Positions 168 through 11,560 of a stretch of 11,560 nucleotides of DNA are shown here, piece by piece (positions within the stretch are counted from its first letter, which is position 1; each line of letters opens with the position of its first letter). Where the stretch lies: NCBI GenBank assembly GCA_031289875.1, contig JAITOO010000185.1, positions 1-11,560 of the forward strand, written 5' to 3'. A program made the translations under genes and the position numbers. Below the pieces are notes generated by a model that saw nothing but the letters and a program-made list of their open reading frames with translations, searched no databases and had not been told where the DNA came from. The stretch comes from Flavobacteriaceae bacterium (GTDB taxonomy: Bacteria > Bacteroidota > Bacteroidia > Flavobacteriales > Weeksellaceae).

Positions 168-224
168 GGGTCGAATGTTGCGGGGACATTTGTATGGCTA
201 TAAATATATGAATCTTTCGGATTC
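168..224 (+). repeat. Direct repeat unit, copy A
   Basis: This copy starts GGGTCGAATGTTGCG, then has GGACATTTG, a CTATAAA block, and a GAATC...GATTC hairpin. The same order of blocks recurs at 291-349. The first 15 bases are identical in both copies; the interior is diverged. Confidence 0.75.
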
Positions 225-1574: not shown

Positions 1575-3299
1575 TTATCTGCTGCTCATTTTTTTGACTT
1601 TTTTCACTTCAATATAGTAATTGGGATTGACGGAAAAGGCAGCGATAATTTTCTTTTTAGCGGTGATTTTCTGCGGTTTGTTGGTTGGGACGAGTTTTCC
1701 CAGCGAAGTTTTTATCGGCATGTCGAAACCCGGAATTGTGTTTTTCCAGCGGTATCGAATCGTTTCTTTGTCCACGATGAAATATTCAAATGTCGGGACT
1801 TTGGTCTGTCGCAGATATTGGTCGAAAAATTTGGTCAAATTCAGTCCCGAAGCGGAAGCCATGAAATCCTCAATTTCTTTTTCTGAAACGGTTTTATGAT
1901 AAAAATTCTTATTCATGTCTCGAAGCATCTGCCTGAATTTGTTGTCGTTGTCTATCCATTGGCGGAGTGTGTGAAGCATGTTTGCGCCTTTGTCATACAT
2001 GTCCCCGCTTCCGTTTGCAATCGACACGTCGTTTTTGATGTTTTTCCGCTGTCCGATAATGTATTTTTCTGCGTTTTCCTTTTTGAAAGTACTTTCCATA
2101 AACAAAGTTTCGGCATAGGTTGCAAAGGCTTCGTGTATCCACATGTCAGCCATATTGTTGCAGGTGATGCTGTTGCCGAACCATTCGTGCGCTGATTCGT
2201 GAACGATGATAAAATCCCATTTCAAACCTTCGCCCGTTTCGCTTCTGTCTGTGCCGAGATAGCCGTTTTGATATTTGTTTCCGTAAGCGATGTTGCTTTG
2301 GTGTTCCATTCCCAAATGTGAAGATTCTACTAATTTGTAGCTGTCTTCGTAAAAAGGATATGCTCCGAACCAATATTCCAACGCTTTCAACATAGGTTTG
2401 ACCTGCTCGAACTGTTTCTTGGCTTTGTCCACATTGTAGGACAAAACCCAATAATCCAGCGGCAATATACCTTTTTCTCCTCTGTATGAATCGGTAAATT
2501 CCTTATAATCACCAATATACGGAACAATATTGTAGGCGTTAATCGGCTGAGTTATCTGCCAGATGTACGCTGTTTTTCCTGTATCAAATTTTTGGGTAAT
2601 GACTTTATTTTTCGTAATTGTCTTGCCGTTTTTTTCTTTCACGGTAGTTTTGACGATTTGGTCTTCTGAGATTTCATATTTCTTTTTGGACAGCAGTTTC
2701 CCATTTCCTACTCCGACTAAGTCTTTCGTTGTGATAATGGTCATTTTCATGCCTTGCTCAGGTTCGTCGTCGAGAAAATCTTTGCACGGAAACCACGAAC
2801 TAGCTCCAAGTTCTTCGCAGGCAACTGTCATCCAAGGGTTCTTGTTGTTATCTCGGGAGAAAATCCAGCCGCCGTCCCAAGGAGCTTTTTGGGCAATTTT
2901 GGGCTTCCCGCTGAAATAGATAAAAACCGCACCTTTTTGGTTTTTATTGTACAAAAATGCGTCAAACAGGTCGATTTTGTAAATGTTTCCCATTCGAGAG
3001 AAAGTTACGCTCACGCCGGAGGCTATCACGCTGTCGATGCGCATCGGCTGCTGCAAATCAATCTGCATGATAAACTGTTTGTCTTTTACCCTTTCATAAG
3101 TGATAACATTCACGCCTTTAATTGATTGCGTGTTGAAGTCAGGTTCAATGGTGAGGTCGTAATAAAGAACGTTCCACCAGTCCCGCAGCGGAGTGTTAAT
3201 TGCTCTGAAATCTTTTTTATTCTGCGCCTGAACGGAAATCTCTGCTGCTAAAAAACAGAAAATCAAGGACAAGAGAAATAATTTTTTTCTGATACACAT
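1575..3299 (-). CDS. Secreted M1-family zinc metallopeptidase (aminopeptidase)
   Basis: 574 aa. Residues 1-26 form a signal peptide (CIRKK, hydrophobic core, cleavage near VQA-Q), so it acts in the periplasm or outside the cell. The gluzincin signature is complete: H367-E-S-A-H371 with E390 18 residues on (WIHE390AFATYAE) as zinc ligands, and Y435 in MYDKG as the transition-state Tyr. The substrate-binding GAMEN motif is a variant, GMEHQ (330-334), keeping its Glu. The N-terminal beta-rich domain spans roughly 30-270 and the catalytic domain 270-500. At 574 aa it lacks the large C-terminal helical domain of PepN/ERAP-type enzymes. The expected role is removal of N-terminal residues from peptides; specificity is not predictable. 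It is divergent from rnr with its own -7 box, and no strong terminator is visible in the short convergent gap to the upstream gene. Confidence 0.93.
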   Translation of the reverse strand: MCIRKKLFLLSLIFCFLAAEISVQAQNKKDFRAINTPLRDWWNVLYYDLTIEPDFNTQSIKGVNVITYERVKDKQFIMQIDLQQPMRIDSVIASGVSVTFSRMGNIYKIDLFDAFLYNKNQKGAVFIYFSGKPKIAQKAPWDGGWIFSRDNNKNPWMTVACEELGASSWFPCKDFLDDEPEQGMKMTIITTKDLVGVGNGKLLSKKKYEISEDQIVKTTVKEKNGKTITKNKVITQKFDTGKTAYIWQITQPINAYNIVPYIGDYKEFTDSYRGEKGILPLDYWVLSYNVDKAKKQFEQVKPMLKALEYWFGAYPFYEDSYKLVESSHLGMEHQSNIAYGNKYQNGYLGTDRSETGEGLKWDFIIVHESAHEWFGNSITCNNMADMWIHEAFATYAETLFMESTFKKENAEKYIIGQRKNIKNDVSIANGSGDMYDKGANMLHTLRQWIDNDNKFRQMLRDMNKNFYHKTVSEKEIEDFMASASGLNLTKFFDQYLRQTKVPTFEYFIVDKETIRYRWKNTIPGFDMPIKTSLGKLVPTNKPQKITAKKKIIAAFSVNPNYYIEVKKVKKMSSR

Positions 3300-3485: not shown

Positions 3486-5633
3486 ATGGCAAAAAAAAAT
3501 AAAATCCCTGAAAAACACAGGGAAAAACTTCGAGACTTAAAAAGGGAAATTCTGGCTTTGTTCATGAAAAACCCAAACAAGCAATACAATTACAAACAAA
3601 TTTCCAATACGCTGAACCAGCGGAATCCTCGCCAGCGGGAAATAATCGTGCAGGCGTTGCAAAAACTGACTTCGGAAAAACAACTTTTAGAACCGAAAAC
3701 AGGAAAATACCAACTCAATTTTCAAGAACAATTTTTGACAGGAAAAATCGACGTCGGACAAAATGGAAACGCCTACGTCATTGTCGAAGGCTTGGTAAAA
3801 GATATTTTCGTTCCCAAATCCAAAACAGGACGGGCGCTGCAAAATGACATCGTCAAAATCGTAGTGCATCAATACAAAAACCGCCGCCCCGAAGCAGAAG
3901 TTATCGAAGTTATTGAACGGTACAGAACGCAGTTTGTCGGCAAGTTTGAATATAGTCCGAACAAAACTTTCGGCTTTGTGGTCGTAAATAACAATTCCAT
4001 TCACACCGATATTTTCATTCCCAAAGAAAGATTCAAAGGCGCTCAAAACGAGCAGATTGTGTTGGCAGAAATCATTGACTGGCGAGAAGGAGAGGACTCT
4101 CCGCGCGGAAAAATCATTGAGGTTTTAGGAGAATCGGGAGAAAACGAAACAGAAATTCACGCCATTCTCGCGGCATACGGACTGCCTTACCGCTTTCCCG
4201 AAGAGATAGAACAAGAAGCCGCAAATATTGACACTCAAATTACCGAAGCAGAAATCGCCAAACGGCGAGATATGCGCAACATCACAACTTTCACCATCGA
4301 CCCCACTGATGCTCAGGATTTTGACGATGCGCTTTCCATTCAAAAACTTCCGAACGGAAATTGGGAAATCGGCATTCACATCGCCGATGTTTCCCACTAC
4401 GTAAAACCCGGAACGCTCCTTGACGAAGAGGCTTATTCACGTGCAACTTCCGTCTATCTCGTTGATAGAGTTGTGCCTATGCTTCCGGAAATTTTGAGCA
4501 ACAACGTATGTTCCCTCCGTCCGAACGAAGAAAAATACACCTTTTCCGCCGTTTTTGAAATGGACAGATACGCCAACATCAAAAATTCGTGGTTTGGGCG
4601 GACGGTCATCAATTCCGACCGAAGATTTACTTACGAAGAAGCGCAGCAAGTAATTGAAGGACAAAGTCATGAGATGGAAAAGGAACTTTGTACACTGGAC
4701 AAGCTGGCGAAAATTTTGCGGGCGCACCGCCTGAAAAACGGCGCAATTTCTTTCGACAAATACGAAGTAAAATTCCGTCTTGACGAAAGCAAAAATCCTG
4801 TCGGCGTGTATTTTAAAATCAGCAAAGAAAGCAACCATCTGATTGAAGAATTTATGCTTCTCGCCAATAAAAAAGTTTCCGAATTTGTGAGCCTCAAAAA
4901 AGACGGCGAGCCGAGCGGAAGAACTTTTATTTACCGTATCCACGACGACCCCGATCCAAGTAAACTCCTTTCTTTGAAGCAGTTTGTCAATACTTTGGGT
5001 TACGACATCAATATTTCCAATCGAAAGCGCACCACTCAGTCGCTCAACAAGTTGCTGTCAGAAGTAAAAGGCAAGGGCGAAGAAAACATGATTGAAACTT
5101 TAGCGATGCGCACCATGTCAAAAGCAAAATACTCGACGGAAAATGTCGGGCATTACGGTTTGGCATTCGATTATTACAGCCATTTCACCTCGCCGATACG
5201 GCGTTACCCCGACGTTATTGCCCACCGTCTGTTGCAGGATTTTTTAGACGGAAAACTTTCTGCCAATCCTGCTGAAATTGAAGAGCAGGCAAAACATTCG
5301 AGCGAGCGGGAACGCGTTGCAGCCGATGCTGAGCGGGACAGCATCAAATATATGCAGGTGAAATTCATGAAACAATACGTTGGCGAGACTTTCGAGGGTG
5401 TGATTTCCGGCGTAACCGAATGGGGCATTTACGTGGAAATCAGGAATTTCGGAGCAGAAGGATTAATCCGCCTGCGGGATATTCGCGACGATGATTACCG
5501 GTTTGATGATAAAAATTACGCCATCATCGGACAACGCACAGGAATGCAGTATCAACTGGGAGACACGGTACAGATTAAAGTTACCCGCGCCGACTTGGAG
5601 AGAAAACAACTTGATTTTGAATTGACGGAGTGA
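3486..5633 (+). CDS. rnr: Ribonuclease R (RNB-family 3'-5' exoribonuclease)
   Basis: 715 aa, shorter than the 813-aa E. coli enzyme mainly because it has almost no Lys-rich tail after the S1 domain. Domains in order: basic N-terminal winged helix (~13-72), two cold-shock-like OB domains (~83-215), RNB catalytic domain (~255-600) and S1 domain (~633-712, GETFEGVISGVTEWGIYVE). The RNB metal-binding aspartates are present in FTID272PTDAQD278FD280D281, matching the RNase II D201/D207/D209/D210 cluster. The catalytic-site HFTSPIRRYPD is at 566-576, with R572 at the expected arginine. It degrades structured RNA processively from the 3' end in the cytoplasm, including defective mRNA and rRNA. It starts at the first ATG (MAKKNK). 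It is monocistronic by its own promoter; the next gene has another. All key residues are intact. Confidence 0.97.
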   Translation: MAKKNKIPEKHREKLRDLKREILALFMKNPNKQYNYKQISNTLNQRNPRQREIIVQALQKLTSEKQLLEPKTGKYQLNFQEQFLTGKIDVGQNGNAYVIVEGLVKDIFVPKSKTGRALQNDIVKIVVHQYKNRRPEAEVIEVIERYRTQFVGKFEYSPNKTFGFVVVNNNSIHTDIFIPKERFKGAQNEQIVLAEIIDWREGEDSPRGKIIEVLGESGENETEIHAILAAYGLPYRFPEEIEQEAANIDTQITEAEIAKRRDMRNITTFTIDPTDAQDFDDALSIQKLPNGNWEIGIHIADVSHYVKPGTLLDEEAYSRATSVYLVDRVVPMLPEILSNNVCSLRPNEEKYTFSAVFEMDRYANIKNSWFGRTVINSDRRFTYEEAQQVIEGQSHEMEKELCTLDKLAKILRAHRLKNGAISFDKYEVKFRLDESKNPVGVYFKISKESNHLIEEFMLLANKKVSEFVSLKKDGEPSGRTFIYRIHDDPDPSKLLSLKQFVNTLGYDINISNRKRTTQSLNKLLSEVKGKGEENMIETLAMRTMSKAKYSTENVGHYGLAFDYYSHFTSPIRRYPDVIAHRLLQDFLDGKLSANPAEIEEQAKHSSERERVAADAERDSIKYMQVKFMKQYVGETFEGVISGVTEWGIYVEIRNFGAEGLIRLRDIRDDDYRFDDKNYAIIGQRTGMQYQLGDTVQIKVTRADLERKQLDFELTE

Positions 5634-6468: not shown

Positions 6469-9099
6469 ATGGATTTTAATAAATTAACCATCAAATCGCA
6501 GGAAGCCTTGCAGCAAGCCCAAGTAATTGCACAAGGCATGGAAAATCAAGCCATTGAGACGGCTCACTTGCTCAAAGTTCTTTTGGAAAGCGAGGCAAGC
6601 GTGATTACTTTTATACTCAAAAAGCAAAATTCAAACTTAGCATACATCAATTCAGAACTTCAAACGATTCTTTCGAGCCTGCCCAAAGTTTCGGGCGGAC
6701 AATTGTATCTTTCGCAAAACGCCAATAAAGCATTAAACGACGCACAGTTGGAGGCAAACAAAATGAAAGATGAATTTGTTAGTTTGGAACATATTTTTTT
6801 AGGGATTTTTTCTGTCAATGACAAGATTTCTCAATTACTCAAAAATCAAGGAGTTACCAAAGACGGCGTGCTGAAAGCCATTGAAGAAATCAGAAAGGGC
6901 GAACGCGTAACGTCCCCATCGGCAGAAGATACCTACAATTCCCTGAACAAATATGCCAAGAATTTGAATGAACTCGCTCAGGAAGGTAAATTGGACCCCG
7001 TTATTGGGCGGGACGACGAGATCCGCCGCGTGCTGCAAATCCTTTCCCGAAGGACAAAAAACAACCCGATTCTTATCGGCGAGCCGGGCGTTGGAAAAAC
7101 GGCTATAGCAGAAGGAATTGCACACCGAATCATCAACGGCGACGTTCCCGAAAATTTAAAAGATAAAACCATTTATTCGCTTGATATGGGTGCGTTGATT
7201 GCAGGCGCAAAGTACAAAGGAGAGTTTGAAGAAAGGCTGAAAGCCGTTATCAAAGAGGTTACTTCGTCCGCAGGAAACATCATTTTGTTCATAGACGAGA
7301 TTCACACTCTGGTCGGCGCAGGAGGCGGAGAAGGAGCCATGGACGCAGCCAACATTTTGAAACCCGCTTTGGCTCGTGGAGAACTCCGCTCTATCGGTGC
7401 AACAACCTTGAACGAATATCAAAAATATTTTGAAAAAGATAAAGCGTTAGAGCGTCGTTTTCAGAAAGTTATGGTTGAAGAACCTGAGGTGGAAGATGCT
7501 ATCGCTATCTTGCGGGGAATTAAAGAAAAATATGAAGCGCATCACAAAGTCAGAATCAAAGACGAAGCCGTGATTGCCGCCGTCGAACTTTCCAACCGTT
7601 ATATTTCCGACCGTTTTCTTCCCGACAAGGCGATAGACCTGATGGACGAGGCTTCTGCCAAGCTCCGCATGGAAATGAACTCCAAGCCTGAAGAATTGGA
7701 TATTTTGGATAGAAAAAAAATGCAACTGGAAATTGAACGCGAAGCCGTGAAACGCGAAGCGGAAAGCCCGACTTCCAACGAGGCTTTGAAACAGTCCAAT
7801 GAAAAACGATGGGCAACTGTGAAAGAAGAATTAGCTCAGCTCAACGAAAAGCGGAATGAACTTAGCGCTTTGTGGAAAGCAGAAAAGGAACGCGCCGAGA
7901 AAGTACAGGAAATCCGAAAAAACATTGAAGAATTTAAGCAGGAAGCCGACCGCGCCGAGCGTTCAGGAGATTATGGAAAAGTCGCCGAATTGCGTTATGG
8001 AAAAATCAAAGAGCAAGAAGAACTTTTGGCAAAAGCGGAAGCTGAACTTTCCGATGACCGTCCGCGCCTGATTAAGGAAGAGGTTGATTCGGAAGATATT
8101 GCAGATGTGGTTGCCAAATGGACGGGCATACCTGTAACTAAATTAGTGCAGGGCGAACGGGAAAAACTGCTCAATTTGGAATCTGTTTTGCATCGGCGGG
8201 TTGTCGGACAAGAAGAAGCAATAGAAGCTGTCGCCGATGCTATCCGCCGAAACCGTGCAGGGCTTAACGATGAAAGAAAACCTATCGGCTCGTTTTTGTT
8301 TTTGGGAACGACGGGTGTCGGAAAAACCGAACTGGCAAAGGCTTTGGCTGAATTTCTCTTCGACGATGAAAATTCGATGACGCGTATCGACATGAGTGAA
8401 TATCAGGAAAAGCATTCTGTAAGCCGTTTGGTCGGTGCGCCTCCGGGATACGTCGGTTACGACGAAGGCGGACAACTGACTGAGGCTGTGCGCAGAAGAC
8501 CTTACTCCGTAGTGCTTTTGGACGAAATCGAAAAGGCGCATCCCGATGTGTTCAACCTCTTGCTCCAAGTCTTGGACGATGGTCGATTGACGGACAACAA
8601 AGGTCGGATGGTGAACTTCAAAAACACGATTATTGTGATGACTTCCAATCTTGGCTCTCATCTGATTCAGGAAAATTTTGAAAAATTGGAAAGCGGCAAC
8701 TACAAGGAAATTCTGGAACTTACCAAAGAGCAAGTTATGGAACTGCTGCGGAAAACATTACGCCCTGAATTTTTGAACCGAATTGACGAGACGATTGTTT
8801 TCAAACCGTTGAACCATAAGGAAATACGAAGCATTATTGATATTCAGTTGGACGCTTTGAACAAAATCCTTTCCAAGAAAGGCATTCACATGGACATGAC
8901 CGACGACGCCAAAGACTACGTGATGGGCAAAGGCTATGACCCGTCTTTTGGAGCGAGACCGCTTAAAAGGTTGATACAGCACGAGATACTGAATCAGCTG
9001 TCCAAAGAAATTTTAAGCGGAAAAGTCAATGACAATGACAACATCATTGCTGACTATTTCCCTGAAACCGGTTTGGTTTTCAGGAAGAAAGAGGTTTGA
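6469..9099 (+). CDS. clpB: ATP-dependent chaperone/disaggregase ClpB
   Basis: 876 aa, the normal ClpB length (857 in E. coli). Order: Clp N domain with two repeats (~1-150); AAA+ module 1 with Walker A GEPGVGKT (204-211), Walker B FID276E277 and arginine pair ERRF (R329/R330); the long coiled-coil middle domain (~405-530) that separates ClpB from ClpA/ClpX; AAA+ module 2 with Walker A GTTGVGKT (613-620), Walker B LLD685E686, arginine R771 in FLNRID, and sensor-2 GAR830P. No IGF/L ClpP-docking loop is seen, so it is a disaggregase working with DnaK/DnaJ, not a protease partner. A palindrome and direct repeats lie upstream. All catalytic motifs are intact. Its last 58 bp are duplicated 2 kb downstream (see repeat entries), but this copy is full-length and followed by a terminator. 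Confidence 0.98.
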
Positions 9100-9107
9100 T
9101 TTTGAGA
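9042..9107 (+). repeat. 66-bp direct repeat, left copy (3' end of clpB)
   Basis: It covers the last 58 bp of clpB, including TGA, plus 8 bp. It is identical base for base to 11105-11170; identity stops abruptly on both sides. It contains the palindrome AAACCGGTTT (9065-9074) and a hairpin CCTGAAACC / GGTTTTCAGG (9061-9069/9075-9084, one-base bulge). Candidate attachment or recombination site (inference). Confidence 0.95.
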
Positions 9108-9123
9108 AATAAAAAGTAGTTAT

Positions 9124-9163
9124 AAAAAACCGGTTTGTTTTTACAGCAAGCCGGATTTTATTT
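9124..9163 (+). terminator. Intrinsic terminator after clpB
   Basis: The stem is CCGGTTTG (9130-9137) with CAAGCCGG (9147-9154), one G-U pair, 9-nt loop, preceded by an A-run and followed by ATTTTATTT. The A-rich left side would also help in the other orientation, for the convergent lipoprotein/membrane-protein transcript. Confidence 0.75.
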
Positions 9164-9203
9164 GTAATGAAATTACAACGGATATTTACTTTTCTTAATT
9201 AAA

Positions 9204-9390
9204 CCCTAATTCCGCCATTTTTCACGTAACAGGTAATCTAAAATATTGAAAATAAATAAATTACAAAAAAAATGTTCAATGTTACGTAAAATTTAAAAAT
9301 ACGGAATATATGAGAAAATAAAAAAAATATAATGCACAGATTTACAGACAAATACAAATATGCGTTACGTGTTTTGGAGCGGAGTTAGGG
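9204..9390. repeat. 187-bp element with imperfect ~27-bp terminal inverted repeats
   Basis: The left end, 9204-9230 (CCCTAATTCCGC ... CACGTAAC), and the right end, 9364-9390 (GTTACGTG ... GCGGAGTTAGGG), are inverted. The outer 12 bp match 11/12 and the inner 8 bp match 8/8, with a mismatched 7-bp middle. An extra copy of the inner motif, TGTTACGT, is at 9280-9287. The interior is AT-rich and non-coding. It occupies most of the 373-bp gap between clpB and the next gene. It may be a small non-autonomous element or a structured recombination/termination site. Confidence 0.55.
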
Positions 9391-9480
9391 ACTGATATAA
9401 TAGAAAAACTTGTTATAATGCTGCAAACCTGACGGTTACTAAACATCACAACAAGTCAGTATCAAAATTTAGATTTGCTC

Positions 9481-9708
9481 CTATTTTGTTCGATTTCTTA
9501 TGTATCGGTTATATATTATCAACCCCACAATATTAATAAACAGATATGTAAGTGAATGTAGAAAGACGGTTTTAATGATATTCGGATCGTCGAATATTTT
9601 ATTTTCCGGAAAATCATGTTTTGCTTTTGTAAATTCAAATAATAGATATAATAGGAACATGAAAAAACCGAAAAAAAATAATAAACCAAATTTTAATATT
9701 GTTTTCAT
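9481..9708 (-). CDS. Small two-helix membrane protein, candidate partner or immunity protein of the lipoprotein
   Basis: I take the ATG at 9708 (75 aa, MKTILKFGLL...). An upstream in-frame start at 9777 would overlap the lipoprotein gene and adds a non-hydrophobic 23 residues. Two transmembrane helices are evident, about residues 5-27 (very Phe/Leu-rich) and 46-66, joined by a short polar loop (KAKHDFPENKIFDDP). The C-terminus RYIRNRTK is basic, which by the positive-inside rule puts both ends in the cytoplasm and the loop outside. It begins 10 nt after the stop of the lipoprotein gene, so the two are almost certainly cotranscribed and probably act together at the envelope. I recognise no family. 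Small two-helix proteins next to toxin or bacteriocin genes often give self-immunity; that role is inference. Confidence 0.65.
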   Translation of the reverse strand: MKTILKFGLLFFFGFFMFLLYLLFEFTKAKHDFPENKIFDDPNIIKTVFLHSLTYLFINIVGLIIYNRYIRNRTK

Positions 9709-9718
9709 ACTTTTTGTA

Positions 9719-10510
9719 TTAACATGAAAAATATGCCATCCCTGAAGAAAAACCTGCTTCAGTTGCAATTTGAGCAAAAGCTAGTGGTGCCAGAACGCCA
9801 CCTGAAGCACCTGTATAAATTGCGGCAAAAAGACATCCTGCTCCGGCAGAGGCTGCATCAGCGGCTAAGACATTTTTTGAACAACTACTACTTGTTTCAA
9901 ATTCCGCGCTGTTTCCGGAACTTTGAAAATTTCGATTTTCTAAAGTTTTAAATTTATCATAGTTTCCAAATCCGCCTTTTTTTACAGGTAGCCAAAATTT
10001 TGCAGAATGTTGAATTACAGAGCTAAAAACTAAAAAGGATTCATAATCTCTAACTGATGAATTGGATTCTTTCATTTCCAATTCTAATTTTTTCATAAAA
10101 TCTTCTATTTTTGTAACTGATACATCATTTGCATTTAAATAGTTAATAGTTCGCTCAAAAAATTGGAAATTTTTTCTTTCTTTTAAATTCTGTTGTATAT
10201 ATACTAAATTTGTTTCAAGAGAGTGAGCTTTTTTGAATTTTAAATTATTTTCTTTAGCTATTTCTAAATCGTTAAACTTATCAATAAATTCTTTTTCCAT
10301 GTCATTGGTTGACCAATTAAAATCATTAAATGCTAATTCAAGCGTTTGATTATGTAATTCACCAATACTTCTGATTTGTTCGTCTGTTAAAATGCGTTTC
10401 TCGTCAGTATTACCTGTAAGAATATCAGAGGATTCATTATTACATGAATAAAACAAAGTAAAGGGTGAAATCAGCAAAATACTTAAAAATGAATTTTTGA
10501 TTTTTTCCAT
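9719..10510 (-). CDS. Lipoprotein with a Gly/Ala-rich, Cys-ended hydrophobic C-terminal tail (unknown function)
   Basis: 263 aa from the ATG at 10510; the frame stays open to an ATG at 10597, but only the internal start puts a signal peptide first (MEKIKN, hydrophobic core, FYSC lipobox, then NNESSD). The body (~25-205) is polar, charged and mainly helical, including ILTDEQIRSIGELHNQTLEL and SSVIQHSAKFWLP. The tail after C210 changes character: CSKNVLAADAASAGAGC..., rich in Gly/Ala/Ser, hydrophobic, with Cys at 210, 226 and as the final residue 263. Such a tail could insert in a membrane or be a processed bacteriocin-like peptide. From memory, unchecked, Bacteroidota have hypothetical lipoproteins with a W-containing motif followed by an AADA and Gly/Ala-rich tail. 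It forms a two-gene unit with the membrane protein behind it and is divergent from an XRE regulator. Function unknown. Confidence 0.8.
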   Translation of the reverse strand: MEKIKNSFLSILLISPFTLFYSCNNESSDILTGNTDEKRILTDEQIRSIGELHNQTLELAFNDFNWSTNDMEKEFIDKFNDLEIAKENNLKFKKAHSLETNLVYIQQNLKERKNFQFFERTINYLNANDVSVTKIEDFMKKLELEMKESNSSVRDYESFLVFSSVIQHSAKFWLPVKKGGFGNYDKFKTLENRNFQSSGNSAEFETSSSCSKNVLAADAASAGAGCLFAAIYTGASGGVLAPLAFAQIATEAGFSSGMAYFSC

Positions 10511-10694
10511 GTGATTTGTTTTTAATTTGGGTATAAAGTTAAAATCTTTTTTTTGAATACACACCAAATTTTGACTGAAATTAAGTTCTTTTTTCATTTT
10601 GTTTAAATTTTAAGTTAATAAATTTTATTTTAAAATTTCCGCCCAAAATTGAAAATTATTTTTACATTTACTCATTTAAAAATAAATAAATTCA

Positions 10695-10715
10695 ATTCAA
10701 AAATGAATAATTTTG
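10695..10715 (+). promoter_or_regulatory. Promoter and possible operator of the XRE regulator; likely leaderless mRNA
   Basis: TAATTTTG at 10708-10715 fits TAnnTTTG and ends only 4 nt before the ATG at 10720. Initiation 5-7 nt past the box would fall on or beside the start codon. An inverted repeat ATTCA-AAAA-TGAAT (10695-10699/10704-10708) touches the box and could be an autoregulatory site. The 122-bp gap back to the lipoprotein frame is very AT-rich; no - strand -7 box was found in it. Confidence 0.45.
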
Positions 10716-10719
10716 CAGT

Positions 10720-11082
10720 ATGAGCATAGGAACTAAAATACACAGGCTTCGAGAAGAGCGGAATTGGTCGCAGGAAGAATTGGCAGATTTGCTCGACATT
10801 TCACAGACCAAACTTCACAACATAGAAAGCGGACATTCTCAGAAAATAGATTTTCTGCTTATGGACAAGGTTTGCAAAGTTTTTGATAAAGATTTTGAAT
10901 ATTTTTTGGAAGAAAAAGTAGTTTATAATGTTGAAGAAAATAATGGACAAATAGCTCATAACATAGGAACTATCAATAATTTTCCTGAAAACCTTATCGC
11001 AGATGTCAAAAAATTGGTAGAGGACAATAAAACGAAAGACAAAATCATACAAGAATTGCGTGAACGATTGGGAGAAAAATAG
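10720..11082 (+). CDS. XRE-family helix-turn-helix transcriptional regulator with C-terminal coiled coil
   Basis: 120 aa. Residues ~5-60 form a classic HTH_3/XRE domain: IHRLREERNWSQEELADLLDIS (helices 1-2), QTKLHNIESG (recognition helix) and MDKVCKVFDKDFEYFLEE. A linker follows with NIGTINNF (~86-93), then a helical, charged C-terminus (PENLIADVKKLVEDNKTKDKIIQELRERL) that looks like a dimerising coiled coil. The protein is probably a dimeric DNA-binding repressor. It is divergent from the lipoprotein/membrane-protein pair and the only regulator inside the repeat-bounded segment, so it may control that pair or itself. No aspartyl or LexA-like protease domain is attached. The start is fixed by the domain boundary and by the -7 box immediately before it. 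A homologue with the same layout lies just to the right. Confidence 0.9.
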   Translation: MSIGTKIHRLREERNWSQEELADLLDISQTKLHNIESGHSQKIDFLLMDKVCKVFDKDFEYFLEEKVVYNVEENNGQIAHNIGTINNFPENLIADVKKLVEDNKTKDKIIQELRERLGEK

Positions 11083-11104
11083 TTGCAAAGATATTAAAAC
11101 AAGG

Positions 11105-11170
11105 CATCATTGCTGACTATTTCCCTGAAACCGGTTTGGTTTTCAGGAAGAAAGAGGTTTGATTTTGAGA
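11105..11170 (+). repeat. 66-bp direct repeat, right copy (orphan clpB 3' end)
   Basis: Identical to 9042-9107. In the clpB frame it still reads [22 protein letters not shown], but nothing upstream of it is clpB, so it is an untranslated remnant. It begins 22 bp after the XRE stop codon and is followed by unrelated sequence with no terminator. Confidence 0.95.
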
Positions 11171-11329
11171 GTGTCCGCCATTCTACCTAATACAAGGTTT
11201 AACTATTTGGAAAACATTAAAATAGACGAGTTTACATGAAATTCAAATAACGACTTAACTGATTATATGATTTTTTAGAAAATATAACAGATAGTCATTT
11301 TGAATTTTATAAACGCTGAAAATAATGCG
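11171..11329. other. Non-coding gap right of the repeat
   Basis: 159 AT-rich bp between the right repeat and the stop of the convergent regulator. I see no gene, promoter or strong terminator. One 9-mer, TCCGCCATT (11174-11182), also occurs at 9211-9219 in the left end of the 187-bp element; this could be chance or a trace of shared ancestry. AACGC/GCGTT (11312-11316/11327-11331) is a weak stem at the gene end. Confidence 0.6.
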
Positions 11330-11560
11330 TTATTTCAACTTTTCATTTTCCTCTTTCAAATGTTGGATTTCTTCTTTTAACGATTGGTTTTCCTCCTGCC
11401 ATTTATTTATTGTATTGTGCAAATCCTGTAAAATATAGTCAGGGATGTTGCAATAGACGTTGTTGTTACCTATATAGCTGCTTGATACATTCTCTATATT
11501 TTCGATATTTTGTGCAAGATTTTCATTTTCTTCATAAATATCTTCTACAGGTACATCCAA
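11330..11560 (-). CDS. C-terminal part of a second XRE-type regulator (partial, runs off the window)
   Basis: 77 codons including the TAA are in the window and the frame is open to the right edge, where the first codon is TTG (Leu in the full protein, not a start). The fragment begins LDVPVEDIYEE, the usual last helix of an XRE/HTH_3 domain, so the DNA-binding part lies past 11560. It continues with a spacer containing IGNNNVYCNIPDYILQDL, then a strong coiled coil ending NQSLKEEIQHLKEENEKLK. Order and spacing mirror the regulator at 10720-11082 (its NIGTINNFPENLIADVKKLVEDN aligns with IGNNNVYCNIPDYILQDLHNTIN), so the two are probably distant paralogues. It is convergent with that gene, with the orphan clpB end between them. 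Confidence 0.8.
   Translation of the reverse strand: MDVPVEDIYEENENLAQNIENIENVSSSYIGNNNVYCNIPDYILQDLHNTINKWQEENQSLKEEIQHLKEENEKLK

What the first reader, a model, noticed from the sequence alone, without database searches (positions are those of the whole stretch)
9042..11170. Exact 66-bp duplication of the clpB 3' end brackets a ~2 kb accessory cassette
9042-9107 and 11105-11170 are identical, with identity ending sharply on both sides. The repeat spans the last codons, stop and 8 bp downstream of clpB. This is the signature of insertion at a gene 3' end with regeneration of the end, well known for tRNA and some protein genes with tyrosine recombinases, yet the segment encodes no recombinase. 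It could be an in-trans mobilised cassette, and clpB could be an insertion hotspot. Perfect identity in a partly non-coding stretch suggests a recent event.
Basis: partly seen in the sequence, partly recalled or inferred. Interest (0 to 1): 0.75.

Follow-up and report, generated by a model that had tools for sequence, protein, structure and literature searches.

The report
clpB end duplicated around accessory genes
In an uncultured bacterium the last 66 bases of the housekeeping gene clpB occur a second time 2 kb downstream, bracketing a few accessory genes, a scar that was likely left when incoming DNA recombined into the chromosome.

Summary
Copy 1 ends the intact clpB and is followed by a terminator-like hairpin. 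Copy 2 is a detached fragment between an XRE gene and a dispersed repeat, "B", that starts at its right edge and leads to a second XRE-like gene. The bracketed 2 kb encodes an orphan predicted lipoprotein, a small hydrophobic ORF and the XRE regulator; no recombinase was found in it. clpB is not shown to be a hotspot: 0 of 87 other clpB loci have a duplicated coding end. A like event exists elsewhere in this genome (54 bp behind creD, bracketing a candidate phage-defence ATPase), and similar ones in other genera (rpoD end, a clpB flank, an argF 5' end). Repeats of different events mostly share no sequence, which argues against one integrase. I read it as the scar of a recombination-type insertion: pairing at the clpB end plus a non-homologous joint, stacking two accessory segments. 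Known kin: "insertion with long target duplication" and homology-facilitated or circularised-fragment insertion. No empty allele or reads were available; the mechanism stays inferred (about 0.5).

The parts
   Evidence: 89.7-93.4% protein identity to its counterpart in 8 of 8 genus relatives
9042..9107 (+). repeat copy 1: last 18 codons and stop of clpB plus 8 bp
9130..9154 (+). terminator-like hairpin behind clpB (taken as the usual clpB flank)
   Evidence: hairpin-like sequence also follows clpB in relatives, by eye
9204..9390 (.). dispersed ~187-bp repeat A, MITE-like, inverted ends CCCTAAyTCCGCy
   Evidence: at least 7 other places, whole or partial; ends read by eye
9481..9708 (-). 75-aa hydrophobic ORF, no relatives found
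9719..10510 (-). predicted lipoprotein, 263 aa (the ORF opens at 10597); no other protein found in the homology search; no family over a curated cut-off
   Evidence: lipobox by eye
10720..11082 (+). XRE-type regulator 1, 120 aa
   Evidence: HTH_3, 9.4e-12
11105..11170 (+). repeat copy 2: detached clpB 3' end; no ORF of 50 aa or more overlaps it
11171..11280 (.). start of dispersed repeat B; in three other places of the genome it also begins shortly after a gene stop
   Evidence: gene ends
11330..11560 (-). C-terminal part of a second XRE-like regulator, open at the contig end

Best explanation
The 66-bp repeat is a detached second copy of the clpB 3' end and likely marks the spot where an incoming DNA fragment carrying clpB plus accessory genes was joined to the chromosome, by homologous pairing at clpB on one side and a non-homologous joint on the other. 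In this reading (inferred) one version of the locus carried clpB followed by the hairpin, repeat A, the lipoprotein pair and XRE 1; another carried clpB followed by repeat B and XRE 2. The right edge of the repeat is where the two versions diverge, 8 bp after the stop. The left edge is the arbitrary joint between the end of the XRE 1 segment and the resident clpB. A fragment that first closed into a circle and entered by a single crossover in the shared 66 bp would give the same product. The clpB reading frame stays intact, and the older segment would be pushed downstream behind a 66-bp scar. Recombination between the two copies should delete the segment again (predicted).
For: Exact repeat with sharp edges and intact clpB. 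Two unlike accessory segments lie on the two sides of copy 2, its right edge being the start of a repeat known elsewhere in the genome. A second event of the same build in the same genome: C114, 54 bp, 53 of 54 identical, starting 5 bp after the creD stop, bracketing an AAA_14/DUF4143 ATPase (PADLOC candidate PDC-S01, 1.7e-160); there the right edge of copy 1 is the start of repeat A. Similar structures in other genera: last 66 bp of rpoD, 94% (L038), flank of 64 bp, 81% (L035); clpB flank, 62 bp, 89% (L165), 5' end of argF, 57 bp, 84% (L118). Lengths vary and both 3' and 5' gene ends occur, as expected of recombination. Of 10 pairwise comparisons between the repeats of five events, 8 are at shuffle level; the exceptions are clpB/rpoD (2 of 200 shuffles reach the score) and, weakly, clpB/L035 (20 of 200). 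Circularised fragments entering by single crossover gave such duplications experimentally (109-950 bp in 14 sequenced clones; PMC3240628, passages).
Against: No conspecific genome, so neither the empty locus nor the supposed donor version was seen. Classical HFIR mostly gives deletions, not duplications (PMC3240628 passages). Microhomology at the joint is poor (ACAA on both sides, offset by two G). ComEC and DprA families are present in 9 of 9 genus genomes but also in 10 and 11 of 14 control genomes, E. coli among them, so competence is not shown; Flavobacterium johnsoniae was reported not competent under the conditions used for Riemerella columbina (PMC7965970, abstract in the listing). In my repeat survey a bias to gene 3' ends is not established. 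creD and its right-hand neighbour are apart in the relatives that have both, so there is no empty site for the second event either. The clpB/rpoD similarity (2 of 200) is a result against the no-shared-core argument.
Confidence: 0.5

Rival explanations
1. A mobile island integrated at a recombinase attachment site in the clpB 3' end; it lost its integrase or uses one in trans, and the repeats are attL and attR.
For: Geometry fits: gene 3' end regenerated, direct repeats at both edges. A 450-aa integrase-like gene exists on contig C3. clpB and rpoD repeats are somewhat alike (2 of 200 shuffles). ICEs of P. syringae form 52-bp direct repeats at a tRNA-Lys, one site being near clpB (PMC10945833, passage).
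Against: No recombinase found in the segment; no shared core with the creD event (112 of 200 shuffles reach the score); no 66-mer trace in contig C3; no clpB coding-end duplication in 87 other loci; no relatives of the XRE or the lipoprotein found in viral contigs.
Confidence: 0.15
2. Template switching or repair copying inside one cell copied the clpB end into an older accessory array, with no incoming DNA.
For: Needs no donor; scattered duplications of this size exist in other genomes.
Against: Does not explain why the two copies lead into two unlike accessory segments, nor the same build at creD.
Confidence: 0.15
3. Transposition of repeat B (or a larger unit with XRE 2) from behind clpB to a place behind XRE 1, carrying 66 bp of clpB along by aberrant end use.
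For: Repeat B starts exactly at the right edge of copy 2 and occurs in at least 4 places, window included.
Against: The other three B copies follow long reading frames of their own, not detached fragments (in C52 the frame reaches the contig start); no transposase found; no B match in the fetched creD stretch of C114.
Confidence: 0.12
4. Assembly artefact: copy 2 is a chimeric join.
For: Fragmented MAG, 233 contigs; copy 2 ends 390 bp from the contig end.
Against: 119-bp overlaps suggest that k-mers span the 66-bp repeat with its flanks; both flanks hold repeats of this same assembly.
Confidence: 0.06

Closest known systems
Insertion with long target duplication (Nobusato, Uchiyama, Ohashi, Kobayashi 2000, H. 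pylori R-M genes)
   Same: Accessory gene unit bracketed by long, variable direct repeats of the target (known to me here only from passages that cite it in PMC1643837, PMC3154945 and PMC3031569; the 2000 paper was not looked up, the 2010 follow-up is not held)
   Different: Cargo here is not restriction-modification; an empty allele was not seen; the second copy leads into another accessory segment
Homology-facilitated illegitimate recombination, and single crossover of circularised fragments
   Same: Homologous anchor plus non-homologous joint; the circularised variant gives partial gene duplication (PMC3240628 passages)
   Different: Typical HFIR gives deletion of resident DNA; donor unknown here
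T6SS immunity-gene arrays of Vibrio cholerae
   Same: Stacked segments, in one model step an older effector gene's 3' end is shifted downstream; the authors suggest an HFIR-like event (PMC5361080 passages)
   Different: No secretion cluster here; the shifted fragment is from a housekeeping gene
Integrase-bearing islands at gene 3' ends
   Same: Direct repeat regenerates a gene 3' end
   Different: No integrase found in the segment, no core shared with the creD event

Membership tests
Insertion with long target duplication | insert bracketed by a long direct repeat of the target | tested here: met
   66 bp
Insertion with long target duplication | repeat length varies between events | tested here: met
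   66, 54, 66, 64, 62, 57 bp; six events, not a random sample
Insertion with long target duplication | single-copy empty allele in a close relative | tested here: inconclusive
   8 of 8 genus relatives have one match but unlike downstream DNA; no conspecific
Insertion with long target duplication | restriction-modification cargo (frequent, not required) | tested here: not met
Homology-facilitated illegitimate recombination | 3-10 bp microhomology at the joint | tested here: inconclusive
   ACAA offset by GG; donor continuation unknown
Homology-facilitated illegitimate recombination | natural competence | tested here: inconclusive
   ComEC and DprA families in 9 of 9 genus genomes, but also in 10 and 11 of 14 controls
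Homology-facilitated illegitimate recombination | resident DNA deleted at the insertion | tested here: inconclusive
   the clpB end is duplicated rather than deleted; deletion elsewhere cannot be judged without an empty allele
Integrase island at a gene 3' end | recombinase gene in the element | tested here: not met
Integrase island at a gene 3' end | repeat contains a core shared between events | tested here: not met
   clpB versus creD repeat: score reached by 112 of 200 shuffles; but clpB versus rpoD by 2 of 200
Transposon or IS insertion | short target duplication of fixed length | tested here: not met
   54 and 66 bp in the same genome

The most novel reading that the evidence does not exclude
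Accessory and defence genes of these bacteria travel as small circles that carry the end of a host gene as their address, enter by single crossover there, and pile up behind housekeeping genes as stacked segments separated by gene-end scars; contig C5 (an AlwI-type R-M unit that assembles into a 5.8-kb circle with the 3' part of a kinase gene) would be such a circle caught free.
Probability: 0.1. Interest if true: 0.75.

Novelty: new member of a known kind. Interest (0 to 1): 0.4.

Why it matters
If gene-end scars regularly separate stacked accessory segments, they are a readable record of how small accessory and defence genes enter genomes without transposases or integrases. Counting such scars in closely related strains would test the role of recombination-type insertion in gene gain, which in the papers seen here was described from laboratory transformation or conjugation, H. 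pylori and Vibrio.

Tried and rejected
Hotspot at clpB: not supported on 80 + 8 loci, one shared (L098 and G007:C58 agree in contig length and clpB position); 8 of the 80 hold under 2.1 kb behind clpB. Matches of 14-25 nt inside the coding end were taken as chance. Plasmid or phage origin by DNA similarity: no match of 9108-11560 in PLSDB or INPHARED; the clpB 40-mer, the XRE and the lipoprotein gave nothing in viral contigs. Native right flank from synteny: genus relatives have unlike DNA behind clpB, so this is open. Empty site for the creD event: creD is in 4 of 9 genus genomes (own included), the neighbour gene in 9 of 9; in the three relatives with both they lie on other contigs (G001, G007) or about 0.7 Mb apart (G004). 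Bias of repeats to gene 3' ends: not established. XRE regulator as agent of insertion: considered because XRE relatives sit beside variable cargo in G061, G111 and G099, but the repeats do not bracket the XRE in L035 and L038. Microhomology: not convincing. Lipoprotein homologues: one hit, itself; a weak match in G096 (E 8e-4, two stops) was not followed. Passages of PMC2884548 and PMC3784515 were seen and not used for an argument.
Full report
Observation. The 66-bp repeat is real and exact and has only two matches in the assembly. The window is a complete 11,560-bp contig (C188) of a 2.0-Mb draft genome of 233 contigs. The best-matching clpB genes by protein are in a Flavobacteriaceae MAG (93%) and in Chryseobacterium (69-71%), so I take it as a member of Flavobacteriales. 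Assembly error is unlikely: five of six exact end overlaps among the contigs I fetched are 119 bp, one is 109 bp, so graph k-mers should span a 66-bp repeat with flanks. No reads were available to prove it. The names clpB, creD, rpoD, argF, deoC and ahpC are by recall; no call names those proteins.

Anatomy. Copy 1 ends an intact clpB. It is followed by a terminator-like hairpin at 9130-9154, as clpB seems to be in its relatives (by eye), and then by a MITE-like dispersed repeat A at 9204-9390, found whole or in part in at least seven other places. Next come a small hydrophobic ORF and a predicted lipoprotein on the minus strand, then an XRE regulator on the plus strand. The homology search over about 5.8 billion proteins found only the lipoprotein itself, and it reaches no curated family cut-off. 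No recombinase or transposase was recognised in the segment. Copy 2 starts 22 bp behind the XRE stop, is overlapped by no ORF of 50 aa or more, and ends where a second dispersed repeat, B, begins. B occurs in at least three other places, each time starting shortly after the stop of a reading frame. Behind B lies the end of a second XRE-like gene that runs off the contig. So copy 2 is a scar between two accessory segments.

Is clpB a hotspot? In 80 clpB loci from named records none has a copy of 30 or more bases of the coding end; 8 of the 80 hold less than 2.1 kb behind clpB, so a copy could have been missed there. The eight genus relatives, one of them shared with that set, each have one match to the 408-bp clpB end and no nearby repeat of it. 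Four of the 80 have a direct copy of 30 or more bases of the downstream flank (L128, L158, L165, L167); only L165, a Lacinutrix MAG, is strong (62 bp, 89%), bracketing a deoC-like gene.

Other events. In the same genome, contig C114 has 54 bp behind creD repeated 1.8 kb on (53 of 54 identical), bracketing an ATPase of the PADLOC candidate family PDC-S01. In Flavobacterium akiainvivens (L118) the 5' end of an argF-like gene is repeated upstream of a 183-aa gene. L035 and L038 were fetched because of their XRE genes, so they are not a random sample.

Survey (pairs of 40-300 bp, at least 80% identical, at least 400 bp apart; isolated = no other pair overlaps). G000, 54 loci, 372 kb (13 chosen because they match the window's repeats, C114 known beforehand): 4 isolated pairs, namely the window, C114, a 5' end on C101, and contig C5's own circular overlap. 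G004/G005, 20 stretches, 400 kb: 2. Genus clpB loci, 8, 120 kb: 1. XRE loci of other genera, 6, 73 kb: 5, three of them in one repeat-rich locus (L039). The 80 clpB loci, 1.58 Mb: 11. So such repeats recur but are not frequent, they are not confined to this genome, and a 3' bias is not shown.

Mechanism. Eight of ten comparisons between repeats of five events are at shuffle level (clpB/rpoD is an exception at 2 of 200, clpB/L035 a weak one at 20 of 200), lengths differ, and one event lies at a gene 5' end. This speaks for a general recombination process that copies whatever host sequence is shared, rather than one integrase. The assembly holds three matches to the tyrosine-recombinase family, and the contig of the one that is not Xer-sized has no trace of the 66-mer. 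A fragment pairing with clpB on one side and joined non-homologously on the other, or a circularised fragment entering by single crossover, gives this product. The second route produced 109-950 bp duplications in E. coli (PMC3240628, passages). Stacked arrays for which an HFIR-like event was proposed are described for Vibrio T6SS immunity genes (PMC5361080, passages). Natural competence is reported for two Riemerella species, but Flavobacterium johnsoniae was not competent under the same conditions (PMC8383284 and PMC7965970, abstracts in the listing). In the genus of this window ComEC and DprA families are present in 9 of 9 genomes, which is compatible but not specific, since most control genomes have them too.

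Known kind. The structure matches "insertion with long target duplication" from H. pylori (seen only as cited). I therefore file it as a new member of a known kind, with the twist that the second copy separates two accessory segments. Six paper searches ran; only asked for clpB with Flavobacteriia or insertion hotspots, and its six listed papers did not show this finding by title or abstract start. That is no proof that it is unpublished.

What is shown and what is inferred. Shown: the repeat, its edges, its neighbours, the like event at creD, no recombinase recognised in the segment. Inferred: direction of events, incoming DNA, stacking, recency, deletability. Not available: a conspecific genome, reads, the right-hand end of the second segment.

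Noticed in passing
L182 (G000:C5, 1-5961): Contig with identical 119-bp ends, hence a 5,842-bp circle in the assembly: AlwI-type restriction enzyme, two DNA methylases, a 375-aa protein without a Pfam match (AT-rich) plus a GC-rich 190-aa 3' part of a pfkB kinase gene; no replication gene recognised, no PLSDB match. Possibly foreign to this genome.
   Followed up: partly
window 9204-9390 and G000 contigs C191, C173, C155, C174, C114, C21, C6: Dispersed ~190-bp MITE-like element with inverted ends, next to TTAA-like bases.
   Followed up: partly
L036 and L037 (G111, G099): Related XRE genes sit next to an ahpC-like gene with different cargo genes between them and a peptidase gene in two genomes (names by recall).
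   Followed up: no
L118 3343-3399 and 3986-4042: 5' end of an argF-like gene duplicated upstream, bracketing a 183-aa gene.
   Followed up: partly
L199 (G000:C101) 203-424 and 3835-4069: Upstream region and first codons of an M16-peptidase-like gene (name by recall) repeated at 86% near the contig end.
   Followed up: no
window 168-214 and 291-337: 47-bp direct repeat, 85% identical, 123 bp apart near the contig start.
   Followed up: no
L097 (G006:C11) 1-248 and 2958-3182: Direct repeat of about 240 bp, 88% identical, at the 5' end of a 791-aa gene and again beyond an XRE-like gene at the contig start, in the genus relative with the best clpB DNA match.
   Followed up: no
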